A stretch of DNA of 64,000 bases from Oscillospiraceae bacterium. GTDB lineage: Bacteria; Bacillota; Clostridia; Oscillospirales; Ruminococcaceae. The notes below the pieces were generated by a model. The model was not told where the DNA came from. It made no database searches and saw only the letters and a program-made list of their open reading frames with translations. Of the stretch, positions 8,215 through 13,170 are shown in pieces. Positions within the stretch are counted from its first letter, which is position 1. Each line of letters opens with the position of its first letter. The position numbers and the translations under genes are program-made. The stretch lies in assembly GCA_017460835.1 (NCBI GenBank), contig JAFUAD010000046.1, positions 1-64,000 on the forward strand, in the 5' to 3' direction.

Positions 8215-8255
8215 AACAGCAAAGCTCCCGCGGGGGGAGCAGGTCACTTGCTGTT
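8215..8255 (-). terminator. Nested hairpin after the NifK-like gene
   Basis: AACAGCAA/TTGCTGTT encloses GCTCCC/GGGAGC, beginning in the NifK-like stop codon and ending in a T/C-rich stretch (GTTTCTTCC) on the minus strand. It is probably a partial terminator or processing site between the reductase genes and the LysR gene. Confidence 0.5.
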
Positions 8256-9591
8256 ACTGATACTGTGCCAGTGCGTTGTTGTAAATATCTTCAATGACTC
8301 GCAGACCGCCGGTGTAGCCGATATAATTGGTCGTCAGAACAATGCGGTAGGGGGTCGGACAGGCGATGGAAAGGAAGTCGCAGTCCTTCTCTTCGGCAAG
8401 CTCCTTGTCCCAGCCGCTGCCGATGATGAGTCCTTTGCCGCTGTGCCGGATGCCGCGCAGGATATCCTGGAGCGCACCGGCGTCCGGGTCAATGTACACC
8501 GGAATCTCACGCTGATCGGAGGCTGCTTTGATATCCGCTTCCACCTGCGCCTTATACTTCTCCGGCGTGTTGTCCACGACAAACTGCTCCTTCGGTACGA
8601 TGCCGGTCTCATGCAGCAAAAAGCGCGTCAGTCCGGCAACATAGCCCGCATCATGGAAGATATGCACATGATTCGGCAGACCGTAGCGGAATTCCAGCAG
8701 GAAGGTTGCAAGATTGTCGAGCTCCTCGTAGTAGGCATTTTCCTCCTCTGTGATGAATGTGCGCGCCCTTTTCCAGTCCAGCTCTGCATGGTGCTTTCGT
8801 GCATAATCGAGCAGCTCCTCCAGAAAACGGGTGGTCTCATTGCCGCCGATCGGCAGATAGCTGAACTTGAAATAGGGCTGGCCGTATCTGCGCTTGAGAT
8901 TTTTCACAATAGGCTCGCCGTACCACGGAGAGACCAGCACGTTGAAATTCGCCCGCGGAATGGTCTGCCATTCCTTCACGCCGCCGGAGTGCGGTCCGAA
9001 GAGAATATTCACCCGGAAGCCAAGTCCCTCAAGCAGACGCTTGAACTCGCGCAGATTGCCTTTCCAGAACTGGTCCTGATACGGCACCGATGCAAACAGA
9101 TTGACGAGATTTTTTTCGGAGCGCGGCGGATTTTCATGCTCAAAGCGGCTGACATACTGCTCGATGATCGCATTCACGACTGCCGAATGCGAGACATAGT
9201 TGCTGGACTTGAAGCCGGAGGTTTCCACATGCACAATCGGCTTGCCCTCATCCAGAAATTCATCCGTCACAGAGGCGACGTCATCTCCGACGATGCCCGC
9301 CGTGCAGCCGGTTACAACGACCTGAAGATCGGTGTCCAGCACCTTGTATGTATTTTTGATGATGCTGCGAAGTCTGTCTGTGCCGCCGAAGACGACCTCA
9401 CGTTCACTGAAATTTGTGCAGGGCGAGGTATCGCCGCCTGCATATCCGGAGCTGCGCTCAAAAAAGCCTTTGATCATCGTACCGCAGCCAGGCCCCGAAT
9501 GCAGAATCGGTACTGCGCGCGGAATTGCAACGACCGTTTGCAGCGCGCCGATTGCACAGGTATAGCGTTCCTGTTCGATCAAACCTGCCAT
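8254..9591 (-). CDS. NifK-like subunit of a nitrogenase-like reductase (candidate MarK)
   Basis: The 445-residue protein belongs to the nitrogenase component 1 fold. Cys12 (YTCAIGAL), Cys36 (HSGPGCG) and Cys96 (TGCTAGIVGDD) have the same spacing as the three P-cluster ligands of NifK, so an [8Fe-7S]-type cluster shared with the D subunit is likely. The start is the ATG at 9591 after GGGAGGAA; it overlaps the stop region of the D gene. It is shorter than NifK (about 520), lacking the N-terminal extension, as in group IV nitrogenase-like proteins. In Rhodospirillum rubrum the equivalent gene order encodes methylthio-alkane reductase. The substrate here is inferred, not shown. Confidence 0.85.
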   Translation of the reverse strand: MAGLIEQERYTCAIGALQTVVAIPRAVPILHSGPGCGTMIKGFFERSSGYAGGDTSPCTNFSEREVVFGGTDRLRSIIKNTYKVLDTDLQVVVTGCTAGIVGDDVASVTDEFLDEGKPIVHVETSGFKSSNYVSHSAVVNAIIEQYVSRFEHENPPRSEKNLVNLFASVPYQDQFWKGNLREFKRLLEGLGFRVNILFGPHSGGVKEWQTIPRANFNVLVSPWYGEPIVKNLKRRYGQPYFKFSYLPIGGNETTRFLEELLDYARKHHAELDWKRARTFITEEENAYYEELDNLATFLLEFRYGLPNHVHIFHDAGYVAGLTRFLLHETGIVPKEQFVVDNTPEKYKAQVEADIKAASDQREIPVYIDPDAGALQDILRGIRHSGKGLIIGSGWDKELAEEKDCDFLSIACPTPYRIVLTTNYIGYTGGLRVIEDIYNNALAQYQ

Positions 9592-9592
9592 A

Positions 9593-11928: not shown

Positions 11929-11950
11929 TGTATTTCCTTCTTTCATTGAT

Positions 11951-12826
11951 TTATCCGTGAGAAAAAGTATCTTTGCGGGCGATGCGCTTCAGGTAAATCT
12001 GATCGCCGAAGTCCTTTTCGCCCGGAACGCCGATTGCATCTGCACGGCAGCGCTGACAGTGCCGGAATACGTCGATATACTGCTCTGCTTTTTGCCGTGC
12101 GCCGTCGATTTCCGCGCAGGTCGGCGGCTTGATATGTGCAAGCTGATGCTGCGGAATCAGCGGGATGATGTTATAAATGGATGCGCCCGCTTCGGCGACT
12201 GTTTTCGCGATTTCTTCGATATGGTCATCGTTGATGCCCGGCACCAGTACGGTATTGACCTTGACAGTGATGTCCGCCGCACTGATTTTGCGGATGCCCG
12301 CAAGCTGATTGCGAATCAGAATTTCCGCCGCTTCCGTTCCGGTGTAATGTACACCGTGGAACAGAATGCCGCCGTTGAGCTGTGCTTCGATCTCCGGATC
12401 GACGGCATTGACTGTGACAGTCAGCGAATCGACGCCCGCTTCGATGACCTCATCGGCCTTTTCATCGAGCAGGAGGCCGTTTGTGCTCATGCACTTCACG
12501 AGATCGGGATAGGCATCCCGGATCAGGCGGAAGGTCTCCAGCGCGTAATCCGAGGCGAGCGTGTCGCCCGGGCCGGCAATGCCGGCAACACTGATCTGCG
12601 GACACAGCTCCAGTGATTTTGCGATGACATCCAGCGCTTCCTCCGGCCTGATGACAGTGGATGCCACGCCCGGACGCTGCTCATAATCATTGATTTTCCG
12701 GTCACAGAATTTGCATTCGATGTTGCAGGTCGGTGAAATCGGCAGATGGATTCTGCCGGTTGTACCGCGTTTTCCCCGCGCAAAGCAGGGATGCCTGTCG
12801 GTTAATTCTTCATACGAGATTGCCAC
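11951..12826 (-). CDS. nifB: Radical SAM cofactor maturase NifB (candidate MarB)
   Basis: NifB fuses two 4Fe-4S units and inserts carbide to make the NifB-co [8Fe-9S-C] core. The radical SAM motif is CNIECKFCDRK (near 34-44), preceded by HPCF and followed by AGPGD near 86 and HCQRCRADA near 253, all typical of NifB. The GTG at 12826 is preferred because GGGAGG lies seven bases upstream; an ATG at 12841 has no ribosome site. This form lacks the NifX-like C-terminal domain, but a separate NifX-like gene precedes and overlaps it by 25 bases. Its presence implies the reductase carries a NifB-derived cofactor. Confidence 0.93.
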   Translation of the reverse strand: MAISYEELTDRHPCFARGKRGTTGRIHLPISPTCNIECKFCDRKINDYEQRPGVASTVIRPEEALDVIAKSLELCPQISVAGIAGPGDTLASDYALETFRLIRDAYPDLVKCMSTNGLLLDEKADEVIEAGVDSLTVTVNAVDPEIEAQLNGGILFHGVHYTGTEAAEILIRNQLAGIRKISAADITVKVNTVLVPGINDDHIEEIAKTVAEAGASIYNIIPLIPQHQLAHIKPPTCAEIDGARQKAEQYIDVFRHCQRCRADAIGVPGEKDFGDQIYLKRIARKDTFSHG

Positions 12827-13170
12827 ATTCCCGCCTCCCATAGTTTTTCGCTGACGATTTTTTCCAGAAGCCTTTCGACCGGCGCTGCGACCTCATAGAC
12901 AGCAATTCCGGCGGAGAGCAGCACTGCGGCTGCGCCCTCGCCGACCCGCACGGCAAACACCGCCGAGACATCCTTCAGCGGATCCTGCAATGCAAAGTCA
13001 AAGCTGTGGCTGCCGTGATGTCCGCCCTGACAGGACGGCACATTCCGGCGCGATTCCACCGGCACAAAGCCGTCAGCATCCACATCGTAGATTTCAAACC
13101 ACTCCGTCCGGCCGAAATGCCGGTCTACATAGAAGCTGTCGCTGCTTGCGAGCGCAATCCGATATGCCAT
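12802..13170 (-). CDS. NifX/NafY-family cofactor-binding protein
   Basis: The 122-residue protein has the dinitrogenase iron-molybdenum cofactor-binding fold, recognisable from VDRHFGRTEWFEIYDVD near 15-31 and RVGEGAAAVLLSAGIAVYEV near 74-93. Such proteins carry NifB-co or related clusters between maturation factors. A His-rich segment (GGHHGSHS, near 49-56) and several exposed Cys could bind metal. The ATG follows AGGAGG by five bases. It lies 12 bases after mccA and overlaps nifB, so it belongs to the same operon. Confidence 0.88.
   Translation of the reverse strand: MAYRIALASSDSFYVDRHFGRTEWFEIYDVDADGFVPVESRRNVPSCQGGHHGSHSFDFALQDPLKDVSAVFAVRVGEGAAAVLLSAGIAVYEVAAPVERLLEKIVSEKLWEAGMWQSRMKN

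What the first reader, a model, noticed from the sequence alone, without database searches (positions are those of the whole stretch)
8254..13170. A complete mar-like nitrogenase-like reductase operon (nifX, nifB, nifH, D, K) among sulfur genes
Seen: NifX, NifB, NifH, NifD-like and NifK-like genes in B-H-D-K order with 11-22 base gaps or overlaps. Residues equal to the P-cluster ligands are present in both D and K, and Cys258 and His438 in D sit where the cofactor ligands belong. nifE and nifN are absent. Known: R. rubrum marBHDK, with the same order, encodes methylthio-alkane reductase, which cleaves C-S bonds to release methanethiol. Inference: this gut-type Firmicute uses a relative to obtain sulfur from an organosulfur compound. 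Neither N2 fixation nor chlorophyll or F430 synthesis fits the context.
Basis: partly seen in the sequence, partly recalled or inferred. Interest (0 to 1): 0.95.

Follow-up and report, generated by a model that had tools for sequence, protein, structure and literature searches.

The report
Sulfur-scavenging nitrogenase look-alike in Ruminococcus
A Ruminococcus-like bacterium carries, in one block with methionine and cysteine genes, a nitrogenase look-alike whose active-site residues match those of an enzyme that cuts carbon-sulfur bonds; it likely scavenges sulfur instead of fixing nitrogen, although a close relative has been reported as a nitrogen-fixing enzyme.

Summary
The operon is real: nifX-nifB-nifH-D-K, minus strand, 13170-8254, continuous with metB- and cysK-like genes. 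D and K match R. rubrum methylthio-alkane reductase (MAR) far better than any solved nitrogenase, and all P-cluster and cofactor ligands of MAR are present.

It is not a MAR proper. D lies in sister clade IV-A ('Nfa', support 99/98), which holds Endomicrobium and Heliophilum enzymes described in print as nitrogenases. In my alignment 49 of 49 IV-A D proteins, Endomicrobium included, have the MAR-type active site and lack residues needed for N2 reduction. Methionine/cysteine genes lie within 7 kb in 22 of 29 IV-A clusters, 0 of 18 nifD controls. In the Ruminococcus branch the Fe protein is a genuine clostridial NifH, so nifH surveys would count it as a nitrogen fixer. Shared palindromes tie the operon to a divergent sulfhydrylase/ABC-transporter operon.

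Most likely: an ATP-driven C-S bond reductase feeding a thiol, probably methanethiol, into methionine; untested. A 2023 preprint already linked IV-A to methyl-sulfur metabolism. Reported 15N2 uptake by Endomicrobium is the main contrary evidence.

The parts
14096..15256 (-). MetB/MccB-like cystathionine synthase/lyase-family enzyme, first gene of the predicted operon (ATG 15256, AAAGGAG upstream)
   Evidence: NCBIfam 547 bits PRK06176 (CGS) and 545 bits PRK07671 (CGL/homocysteine desulfhydrase), both under their cut-offs; PDB best 4l0o CGS 470 bits, 7d7o CGL 448 bits; start
13183..14094 (-). CysK/cystathionine beta-synthase-like PLP enzyme, third CysK-type paralogue of the genome
   Evidence: PF00291; 321.6 bits to CysK, under the cut-off 350.95, while two other copies are over it
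12802..13170 (-). nifX-like, predicted cluster carrier
   Evidence: PF02579 E 1.5e-18
11951..12841 (-). nifB, radical SAM maker of the [Fe8S9C] cluster (predicted), without the C-terminal NifX-like domain
   Evidence: 289 bits to archaeal NifB structures; HPC, CX3CX2C, ExRP, AGPG, TxTxN, CxxCRxDAxG motifs present (motif list recalled)
11080..11946 (-). nifH, Fe protein of genuine NifH type
   Evidence: 462.2 bits to TIGR01287, over the cut-off 394.35; 473 bits to C. pasteurianum NifH, 283 to MarH; tree
9593..11068 (-). nifD-like catalytic subunit D, group IV-A; Cys55/80/148, Cys258, Arg416-His417
   Evidence: 438 bits to MarD 9fmg_A, best nitrogenase 124; tree; residues; model TM 0.91/0.96 to 9FMG_A
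8254..9609 (-). nifK-like subunit K; Cys18/42/102 (start may be ATG 9591)
   Evidence: 375 bits to MarK, next 69; three Cys in 74 of 74 IV-A K rows aligned
7241..8191 (-). LysR-type regulator downstream; membership in the system uncertain
   Evidence: PF00126; a LysR gene is seen in only some related loci
15515..16648 (-). LacI-type regulator between the two operons, predicted to bind the palindromes
   Evidence: conserved in front of metB in most Ruminococcus loci
15317..15345 (-). predicted promoter of the metB-nif operon, TTGACT-17-TATAAT
15355..15370 (-). palindrome GTGAAATCGTTCTCAC, predicted operator, 9 nt from the -35
15460..15475 (-). palindrome GTGAAAACGTTTTCGC, predicted operator
16745..16760 (+). 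palindrome AAGAAAACGTTATCAT, predicted operator
16833..16848 (+). palindrome ATGAAAACGTTCTCGC, predicted operator
16938..16953 (+). palindrome GTGAAACCGTTCTCTT, predicted operator, 10 nt from the -35
16964..16992 (+). predicted promoter of the OAHS-transporter operon, TTGACT-17-TATAAT
17016..18353 (+). O-acetylhomoserine sulfhydrylase (OAHS) (ATG 17064 possible)
   Evidence: 448 bits to TIGR01326, cut-off 495; homologues beside IV-A DK in 14 of 29 clusters
18410..19576 (+). SsuA/NMT1-type substrate-binding protein
   Evidence: PF09084, SsuA family 90.5 bits, under the cut-off 163.5; model resembles ThiY/SsuA/Thi5-type proteins
19589..20608 (+). ABC permease of the same transporter
   Evidence: ORF; homologues beside IV-A DK
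20605..21384 (+). ABC ATPase of the same transporter
   Evidence: ORF; homologues beside IV-A DK

Best explanation
These genes encode a nitrogenase-like enzyme of group IV-A that is predicted to break a carbon-sulfur bond and likely supplies sulfur for methionine and cysteine. Proposed working (inferred unless marked): NifB makes an [Fe8S9C] cluster (its motifs are present, shown), NifX carries it, and it is inserted into D between Cys258 and His417 (residues shown by alignment) with no NifEN step and no molybdenum. The NifH-type Fe protein feeds ATP-driven electrons through the P-cluster (six Cys present, shown) to that cluster. There a small thioether is reductively cleaved to a thiol, most likely methanethiol. 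The sulfhydrylase encoded divergently joins the thiol to O-acetylhomoserine to give methionine, and the MetB/MccB-like and CysK/CBS-like enzymes at the front of the operon pass the sulfur on to cysteine. One LacI-type regulator is predicted to switch both operons through shared palindromes.
For: D and K match MarD/MarK at 438 and 375 bits, the best nitrogenases at 124 and 69; D model on MAR 9FMG_A TM 0.91/0.96, 1.5 A. MAR active-site residues in 49 of 49 IV-A D proteins: Cys73, Trp195, Phe199, Cys270, His375, Arg428, His429; the nitrogenase Val70, Gln191 and His195 are replaced. Methionine/cysteine genes within 7 kb in 22 of 29 IV-A clusters, 0 of 18 nifD loci. No nifE over the cut-off in 30 genus genomes. 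Palindrome core at 3 places in the genome, all here; related loci carry palindromes before 30 of 32 metB and 16 of 19 OAHS genes. 27 of 50 IV-A genomes, R. albus 8, KH2T6 and AR67 among them, have no sulfite reductase family member, which fits a thiol product. A 2023 preprint proposes methyl-sulfur use for IV-A.
Against: Endomicrobium proavitum, whose only nif-like genes are IV-A, is reported to incorporate 15N2 (as told in PMC9147875). No activity has been measured here. The SsuA-like importer suggests a polar or anionic substrate, which volatile thioethers are not. The window genome has a sulfite reductase and a sulfate-assimilation cluster, so a sulfite product could also be used there. mtnA, which would supply methylthioethanol from MTA, is present in only 7 of 20 IV-A genomes tested, the window's own among them, not in the R. 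albus isolates. MarD His194 is not conserved. 7 of 29 clusters have no methionine/cysteine gene in reach; 6 of these 7 have less than 2.1 kb on one side of D, L083 has full flanks.
Confidence: 0.68

Rival explanations
1. A group IV-A nitrogenase (Nfa): the operon fixes N2 with an [Fe8S9C] or Fe-only cofactor and needs no NifEN; the sulfur genes would be neighbours that supply sulfur for cluster building.
For: E. proavitum reported to incorporate 15N2 with IV-A as its only nif-like genes, and Heliophilum fasciatum reported diazotrophic without classical nifHDK (PMC9147875; PMC11257099; PMC8399215). The window D falls in the same clade. Fe protein and NifB are of Nif type. L-cluster-bound NifEN and NifB reduce some N2 (passages of PMC13245594).
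Against: Gln191 and His195 positions are Trp and Phe in 49 of 49; MAR, with the same residues and cluster, makes no detectable 15NH4+ and does reduce acetylene (PMC12552129), so acetylene tests, as cited for Heliophilum, are not proof. Methionine/cysteine context; no nifE.
Confidence: 0.15
2. A sulfonate reductase: an imported sulfonate (isethionate, taurine, methanesulfonate) is cleaved to sulfite, as proposed for isethionate reductase Isr, with a different catalytic site.
For: SsuA/NMT1-type transporter in the predicted regulon and beside DK in 10 of 29 clusters; the window genome has a sulfite reductase; Isr works with SsuCAB and is predicted in intestinal bacteria (PMC11423573).
Against: IsrD keeps one of three P-cluster Cys and neither cofactor ligand, and IsrB is BciD-like, while this system has all ligands and a true NifB. 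27 of 50 IV-A genomes, including three R. albus isolates, have no PF01077 gene. The pocket is more hydrophobic than that of MAR. Structural kin of the binding protein include thiamine-precursor binders, so a sulfonate ligand is not shown.
Confidence: 0.12

Closest known systems
Methylthio-alkane reductase MarBHDK of Rhodospirillum rubrum (group IV-C; PDB 9FMG, 9D9U)
   Same: B-H-D-K gene order; six P-cluster Cys; Cys270, Arg428-His429, Cys73, Trp195, Phe199, His375; fold (TM 0.91/0.96)
   Different: D 40% identical and in a separate clade; His194 replaced by Ile/Met/Val/Leu; Gln74 variable (Thr here); Fe protein NifH-type; separate nifX; methionine/cysteine genes in the operon
Group IV-A NfaHDK (Endomicrobium proavitum; Heliophilum fasciatum NflDK1; 'MarHDK-like IV-A' of PMC10418091)
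   Same: Same D clade (70-71% to two Endomicrobium MAGs, 62% to Heliophilum); same active-site residues; sulfur-gene neighbours
   Different: The Ruminococcus branch carries a genuine NifH in place of the distant H of Heliophilum and Paenibacillus loci; LacI-type regulator; metB-cysK fused into the operon
Isethionate reductase IsrBHDK (Rhodobacter capsulatus)
   Same: Nitrogenase-like sulfur-assimilation system beside an SsuABC-type transporter
   Different: Isr lacks two P-cluster Cys in D and both cofactor ligands, and its IsrB is not NifB-like (as told in PMC11423573)
Mo-, V- and Fe-nitrogenases
   Same: NifH and NifB of Nif type; P-cluster Cys; Cys275 equivalent
   Different: D outside the Nif/Vnf-like/Anf/NifE side of the tree (100/100); no nifE; Gln191 and His195 not conserved; cofactor His in another loop

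Membership tests
Methylthio-alkane reductase (MAR, IV-C) | Six P-cluster Cys in D and K | tested here: met
Methylthio-alkane reductase (MAR, IV-C) | Cluster ligands Cys270 and His429 with Arg428 (suggested hallmark) | tested here: met
   Cys258, Arg416, His417; 49 of 49 IV-A
Methylthio-alkane reductase (MAR, IV-C) | Pocket residues His194, Trp195, His375 | tested here: not met
   Trp185 and His363 kept, His194 is Ile184
Methylthio-alkane reductase (MAR, IV-C) | D inside the MarD clade | tested here: not met
   IV-A separate at 99/98 (root by midpoint)
Methylthio-alkane reductase (MAR, IV-C) | MarH-type Fe protein | tested here: not met
   283 bits to MarH, 473 to C. pasteurianum NifH; inside NifH in the tree (MarH itself not in that tree)
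Methylthio-alkane reductase (MAR, IV-C) | Release of methanethiol and a hydrocarbon from methylthio-alkanes | not testable with these tools
   needs purified enzyme
Group IV-A (Nfa) | D in the clade of Endomicrobium and Heliophilum NflDK1 | tested here: met
   99/98; the Heliophilum D taken as NflD1 from its place beside nflH
Group IV-A (Nfa) | N2 fixation as reported for E. proavitum | not testable with these tools
   needs 15N2 assay
Nitrogenase (Nif/Vnf/Anf) | D on the Nif/Vnf/Anf side of the tree, over the family cut-off | tested here: not met
   132 bits to nifD, cut-off 653.55
Nitrogenase (Nif/Vnf/Anf) | Val70, Gln191, His195 of NifD | tested here: not met
   Cys, Trp, Phe
Nitrogenase (Nif/Vnf/Anf) | nifE in the genome | tested here: not met
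   0 of 30 genus genomes over the cut-off; own genome 88% complete
Isethionate reductase (Isr) | One P-cluster Cys in D, no cofactor ligands, BciD-like B protein | tested here: not met
   three Cys and both ligands in D, NifB-type B; features as told in PMC11423573; IsrD not in the tree
Tetrapyrrole reductases (DPOR, COR, CfbCD) | D/K over the BchN/B, BchY/Z or CfbD cut-offs | tested here: not met
   D at most 57 bits, K at most 88 bits, cut-offs 268-912; not placed in the tree

The most novel reading that the evidence does not exclude
The whole group IV-A 'nitrogenase' clade, the Endomicrobium enzyme included, consists of C-S bond reductases for sulfur scavenging, and its Ruminococcus branch has taken over a true nitrogenase Fe protein to drive a MAR-type catalytic component; nifH-based surveys of rumen and gut therefore count sulfur scavengers as nitrogen fixers.
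Probability: 0.5. Interest if true: 0.82.

Novelty: new variant of a known kind. Interest (0 to 1): 0.64.

Why it matters
Group IV-A is cited as evidence that nitrogen can be fixed without NifEN. If its members are sulfur enzymes, that claim and the minimal gene set for N2 fixation need a second look, and rumen or gut organisms called diazotrophs from nifH would be miscounted: PMC6776011 (passages) scores 23% of 501 cultured rumen genomes as nitrogenase-positive by nifH, and says that N2 fixation in the rumen is negligible. The Ruminococcus operon also shows a genuine NifH beside a MAR-type DK. Ruminococcus albus and Acetivibrio thermocellus carry this enzyme and are cultured, so the question can be tested directly.

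Tried and rejected
Rfam over the window gave only four tRNAs: no known riboswitch or T-box explains the regulation. Isethionate reductase was the main early rival; it fails on cysteines and on the B protein. A second nitrogenase-like cluster of the genome (contig C14) is distant and does not supply NifE. The sulfite-reductase test did not come out cleanly: the window genome itself has one, the only one among 30 genus genomes, so it speaks only for other IV-A genomes. The mtnA test was mixed, 7 of 20. The binding-protein model did not settle the ligand. The palindrome also fits the CcpA cre consensus (recalled), so the neighbouring LacI-type protein is not proven to be the binder. A sixth place matching the palindrome with 2 mismatches lies at 46321 and was not followed.

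Limits. The neighbourhood ORF caller keeps the longer of overlapping frames, so it missed OAHS and K in the window and some nifX/nifB; counts are lower bounds for IV-A and may be so for the controls. The 29 clusters were each represented by the member with the longest record; the controls are 18 Bacillota nifD regions, not random genes. One search kept the best 80 of 99 relatives and used patterns from the window D, which favours close kin; one of the 80 (L055) yielded no D and was left out. For the D tree I kept 7 of the Ruminococcus rows besides the window and 12 of 120 listed MarD proteins; BchN, CfbD and IsrD were not included, and the root is at the midpoint. For the H tree I thinned the Ruminococcus rows and skipped one short row; MarH is not in it. 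The Ruminococcus palindrome pattern was derived from the same upstream regions, so its enrichment there is in part by construction. Several genomes are incomplete MAGs. Paper searches cover only open PMC papers: the IV-A sulfur link is in PMC10418091, and I saw no paper on the residue argument or on the Fe-protein swap, which is weak evidence of absence.
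Full report
Observation. D and K each have a single strong Pfam domain (PF00148); H is PF00142, B is a radical SAM protein with the NifB motifs (motif list recalled), X has the Nitro_FeMo-Co domain. The block starts earlier than reported: a MetB/MccB-like enzyme (15256-14096, AAAGGAG before its ATG) and a CysK/CBS-like enzyme (14094-13183) run into nifX with 1- and 12-nt gaps, so the predicted operon is metB-cysK-nifX-nifB-nifH-D-K.

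Which nitrogenase-like family. Among solved structures D matches R. rubrum MarD (9FMG, 9D9U) at 438 and 437 bits and the best nitrogenase at 124 bits; K matches MarK at 375 bits, next 69. A model of D (37-sequence alignment, mean pLDDT 85) superposes on 9FMG_A with TM 0.91/0.96 and 1.5 A, and on the nitrogenases listed with TM of 0.64-0.76. All NCBIfam models that D and K hit score far under their cut-offs.

Active site. With the residue numbers of the MAR structure paper (PMC12552129; I read its abstract, parts 1-3 of 12 of the text, sections 12 and 26, and passages), the window D has Cys55, Cys80, Cys148 for the P-cluster, Cys258 for Fe1, and Arg416-His417 for the Arg428-His429 pair that the authors suggest as a MAR hallmark; K has Cys18, Cys42, Cys102.

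Clade. A tree of 79 D-type proteins puts the window D in a clade of 49 (99/98) with Ruminococcus albus, Monoglobus, Acetobacterium, Paenibacillus, Clostridium, Pelosinus, Heliobacterium mobile, Heliophilum fasciatum, Elusimicrobiota and two Endomicrobium MAGs. Next to it stands the MarD clade (joined at 99/93); Nif, Vnf-like, Anf and NifE rows fall on the far side of a 100/100 branch (midpoint root). The Heliophilum member is the D beside nflH in its locus, that is NflDK1, which PMC9147875 (section 10 part 1 and passages) puts in a clade with Endomicrobium NfaDK (group IV-A) and predicts to be a nitrogenase, since E. proavitum is said to incorporate 15N2. PMC11257099 (passages) says the group IV genes of that genus encode a functional nitrogenase.

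Residues against N2 reduction. In 49 of 49 IV-A proteins, Endomicrobium included, the positions of NifD Gln191 and His195 hold Trp and Phe, the Val70 position holds Cys, and the Arg-His pair of MAR is present; 5 of 5 NifD, 3 of 3 Vnf-like and 2 of 2 AnfD rows have Val, Gln, His and Gly instead. One pocket residue separates IV-A from MAR: MarD His194 is Ile, Met, Val or Leu in all 49 and His in 12 of 12 MarD. That predicts a related but not identical substrate.

Neighbourhood. Of 80 IV-A loci (79 of the 80, plus the window), 68 have a gene of methionine or cysteine metabolism within 7 kb. Collapsed to 29 clusters at 85% identity it is 22 of 29, against 0 of 18 Bacillota nifD loci (Fisher p 1.1e-7). 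OAHS homologues lie beside 14 of 29, MetI/MetQ methionine-transporter homologues beside 10, the SsuA/NMT1-type binding protein or permease beside 10. Of the 7 without, 6 have less than 2.1 kb on one side of D; L083 has full flanks and still none. Endomicrobium L054 has OAHS and the transporter in front of D; Endomicrobium L056 has a CymR/IscR-type regulator, a cysK homologue and a Cys/Met PLP gene around D-K; Heliophilum and H. mobile have OAHS immediately upstream of D. Homoserine acyltransferase MetA lies near D in 13 of the 80 loci, all of the R. albus type, and in 0 of 29 representatives. The ORF caller lost genes to longer antisense frames, the window's own OAHS among them, so these are lower bounds.

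Regulon. Two palindromes lie before metB (15475-15460, 15370-15355) and three before the divergent OAHS (16745-16760, 16833-16848, 16938-16953). The window holds 9 matches to GNGAAAACGTTNTCNC with up to 2 mismatches, both strands counted, at six places (the sixth, at 46321, lies elsewhere), against 1.57 expected and at most 5 in 100 shuffles. The core GAAAACGTTNTC occurs at 3 places in the 2.98-Mb genome, all here. In related Ruminococcus loci a matching palindrome lies upstream of 30 of 32 metB and 16 of 19 OAHS genes: 97 sites in 23,563 bases upstream of these genes, 11 in the other 612,383 bases of 33 loci; that pattern was drawn from the same regions. Both window promoters read TTGACT-17-TATAAT, with the nearest palindrome 9 or 10 nt upstream of the -35. 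The inference is one regulon under the LacI-type protein encoded between the two operons; catabolite control through cre-like sites is the alternative.

Reductase swap. The window H is closest to genuine NifH (473 bits to C. pasteurianum NifH, 283 to MarH) and passes NCBI's nifH cut-off (462 against 394 bits). In a tree of 48 Fe proteins 17 H proteins from IV-A loci of Ruminococcus, Monoglobus, Acetobacterium and kin form one clade (100/96) beside C. pasteurianum NifH (98/84) inside clostridial NifH, while Heliophilum, Paenibacillus, Ruminiclostridium, Clostridium and Pelosinus IV-A loci carry a distant H, 49-52% identical to the window H. Of 29 IV-A genomes (27 of the branch with NifH-type operons, 2 Endomicrobium) only the two Acetobacterium have a nifE over the cut-off; none of 30 genomes of the window's genus has one. 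A genuine nifH in such genomes is therefore no sign of diazotrophy. The IV-A D is rare in the genus: of 30 genomes only G000 and G202 show it.

What the product may be. 27 of 50 IV-A genomes, among them R. albus 8, KH2T6 and AR67, have no sulfite reductase family member, so sulfite would be of little use there; a thiol that OAHS can use directly fits better. The window genome, however, has a sulfite reductase in a cluster that, read by eye, also holds AprA-, CysD- and OAHS-like genes, so it can probably assimilate sulfate and the test is not decisive for it. The CysK-like enzyme is a third paralogue, under the CysK cut-off, while two canonical CysK exist elsewhere; next to a cystathionine synthase/lyase-type enzyme it may form a reverse-transsulfuration pair, which would be needed if sulfur arrives as methanethiol and enters at methionine. 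This step is inference. mtnA is present here but not in the R. albus isolates (7 of 20 genomes), so the MTA route of R. rubrum is not general for IV-A. H. mobile, Heliophilum and Pelosinus propionicus have both a IV-A D and a MarD, which suggests different jobs. The binding protein resembles SsuA, ThiY and Thi5-type proteins, so its ligand stays open.

Prior work. [quoted passage not shown] The sulfur link of IV-A is thus not new. New here, as far as my searches go, are the clade-wide residue argument with Endomicrobium included, the controlled neighbourhood count, the Fe-protein swap, and the palindrome-defined regulon. Of PMC11423573 I read abstract, introduction, discussion and passages; of PMC8399215, PMC6776011 and PMC13245594 passages only. 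Zheng 2016 (Endomicrobium), North 2020 and Murali 2025 (MAR) I did not read; what I say of them comes from the papers named or from recall.

Verdict. The contradiction between a clade of MAR-type active sites in sulfur operons and the reported 15N2 uptake of Endomicrobium is the open question that this operon makes testable in cultured bacteria.

Noticed in passing
L104:4171-16852 (own genome, contig C14:26170-38851): A second nitrogenase-like cluster: two NifH-like and four D/K-like genes between a radical SAM gene that looks HydE-like and genes that look like hypF and hypE (by eye); most genomes of the genus have similar weak nifE-model hits. Function unknown to me, perhaps a metal-cofactor or tetrapyrrole reductase.
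   Followed up: partly
G255 (genome of L056, Endomicrobium MAG), contig C155:1222-4360: Hits of 336 bits and 83 bits to the nifE model look like canonical nifD and the start of nifE, so this MAG may carry a classical nif operon beside IV-A, or be contaminated.
   Followed up: no
L140:2888-9662 (own genome, contig C94:10887-17661): Probable sulfate-assimilation cluster: OAHS-like, sulfite reductase (PF01077), ThiF-like, AprA-like, CysD-like genes (by eye); the only PF01077 hit among 30 genus genomes, so recently gained or contamination.
   Followed up: partly
L041:9059-10627: Ruminococcus sp. UBA7013 has, near its IV-A locus, a second D on a long branch beside MarD (57% to R. rubrum MarD), with the MAR residues.
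   Followed up: no
L085, L071, L081, L050 (component 20): Corrinoid-methyltransferase-like (UroD family, by eye) genes lie near IV-A D in four loci, in line with the gene clusters of PMC10418091.
   Followed up: no
window 46321-46336: A sixth palindrome-like match (2 mismatches) away from the two operons.
   Followed up: no
window 4561-7163, minus strand: PLP synthase genes (pdxS, pdxT by eye) and a GntR/MocR-type regulator just downstream of the system, whose MetB, CysK and OAHS enzymes all use PLP.
   Followed up: no
window 23273-24427, minus strand: A secreted protein with a dockerin-like C-terminus, read by eye, which would fit a cellulosome-type Ruminococcus.
   Followed up: no
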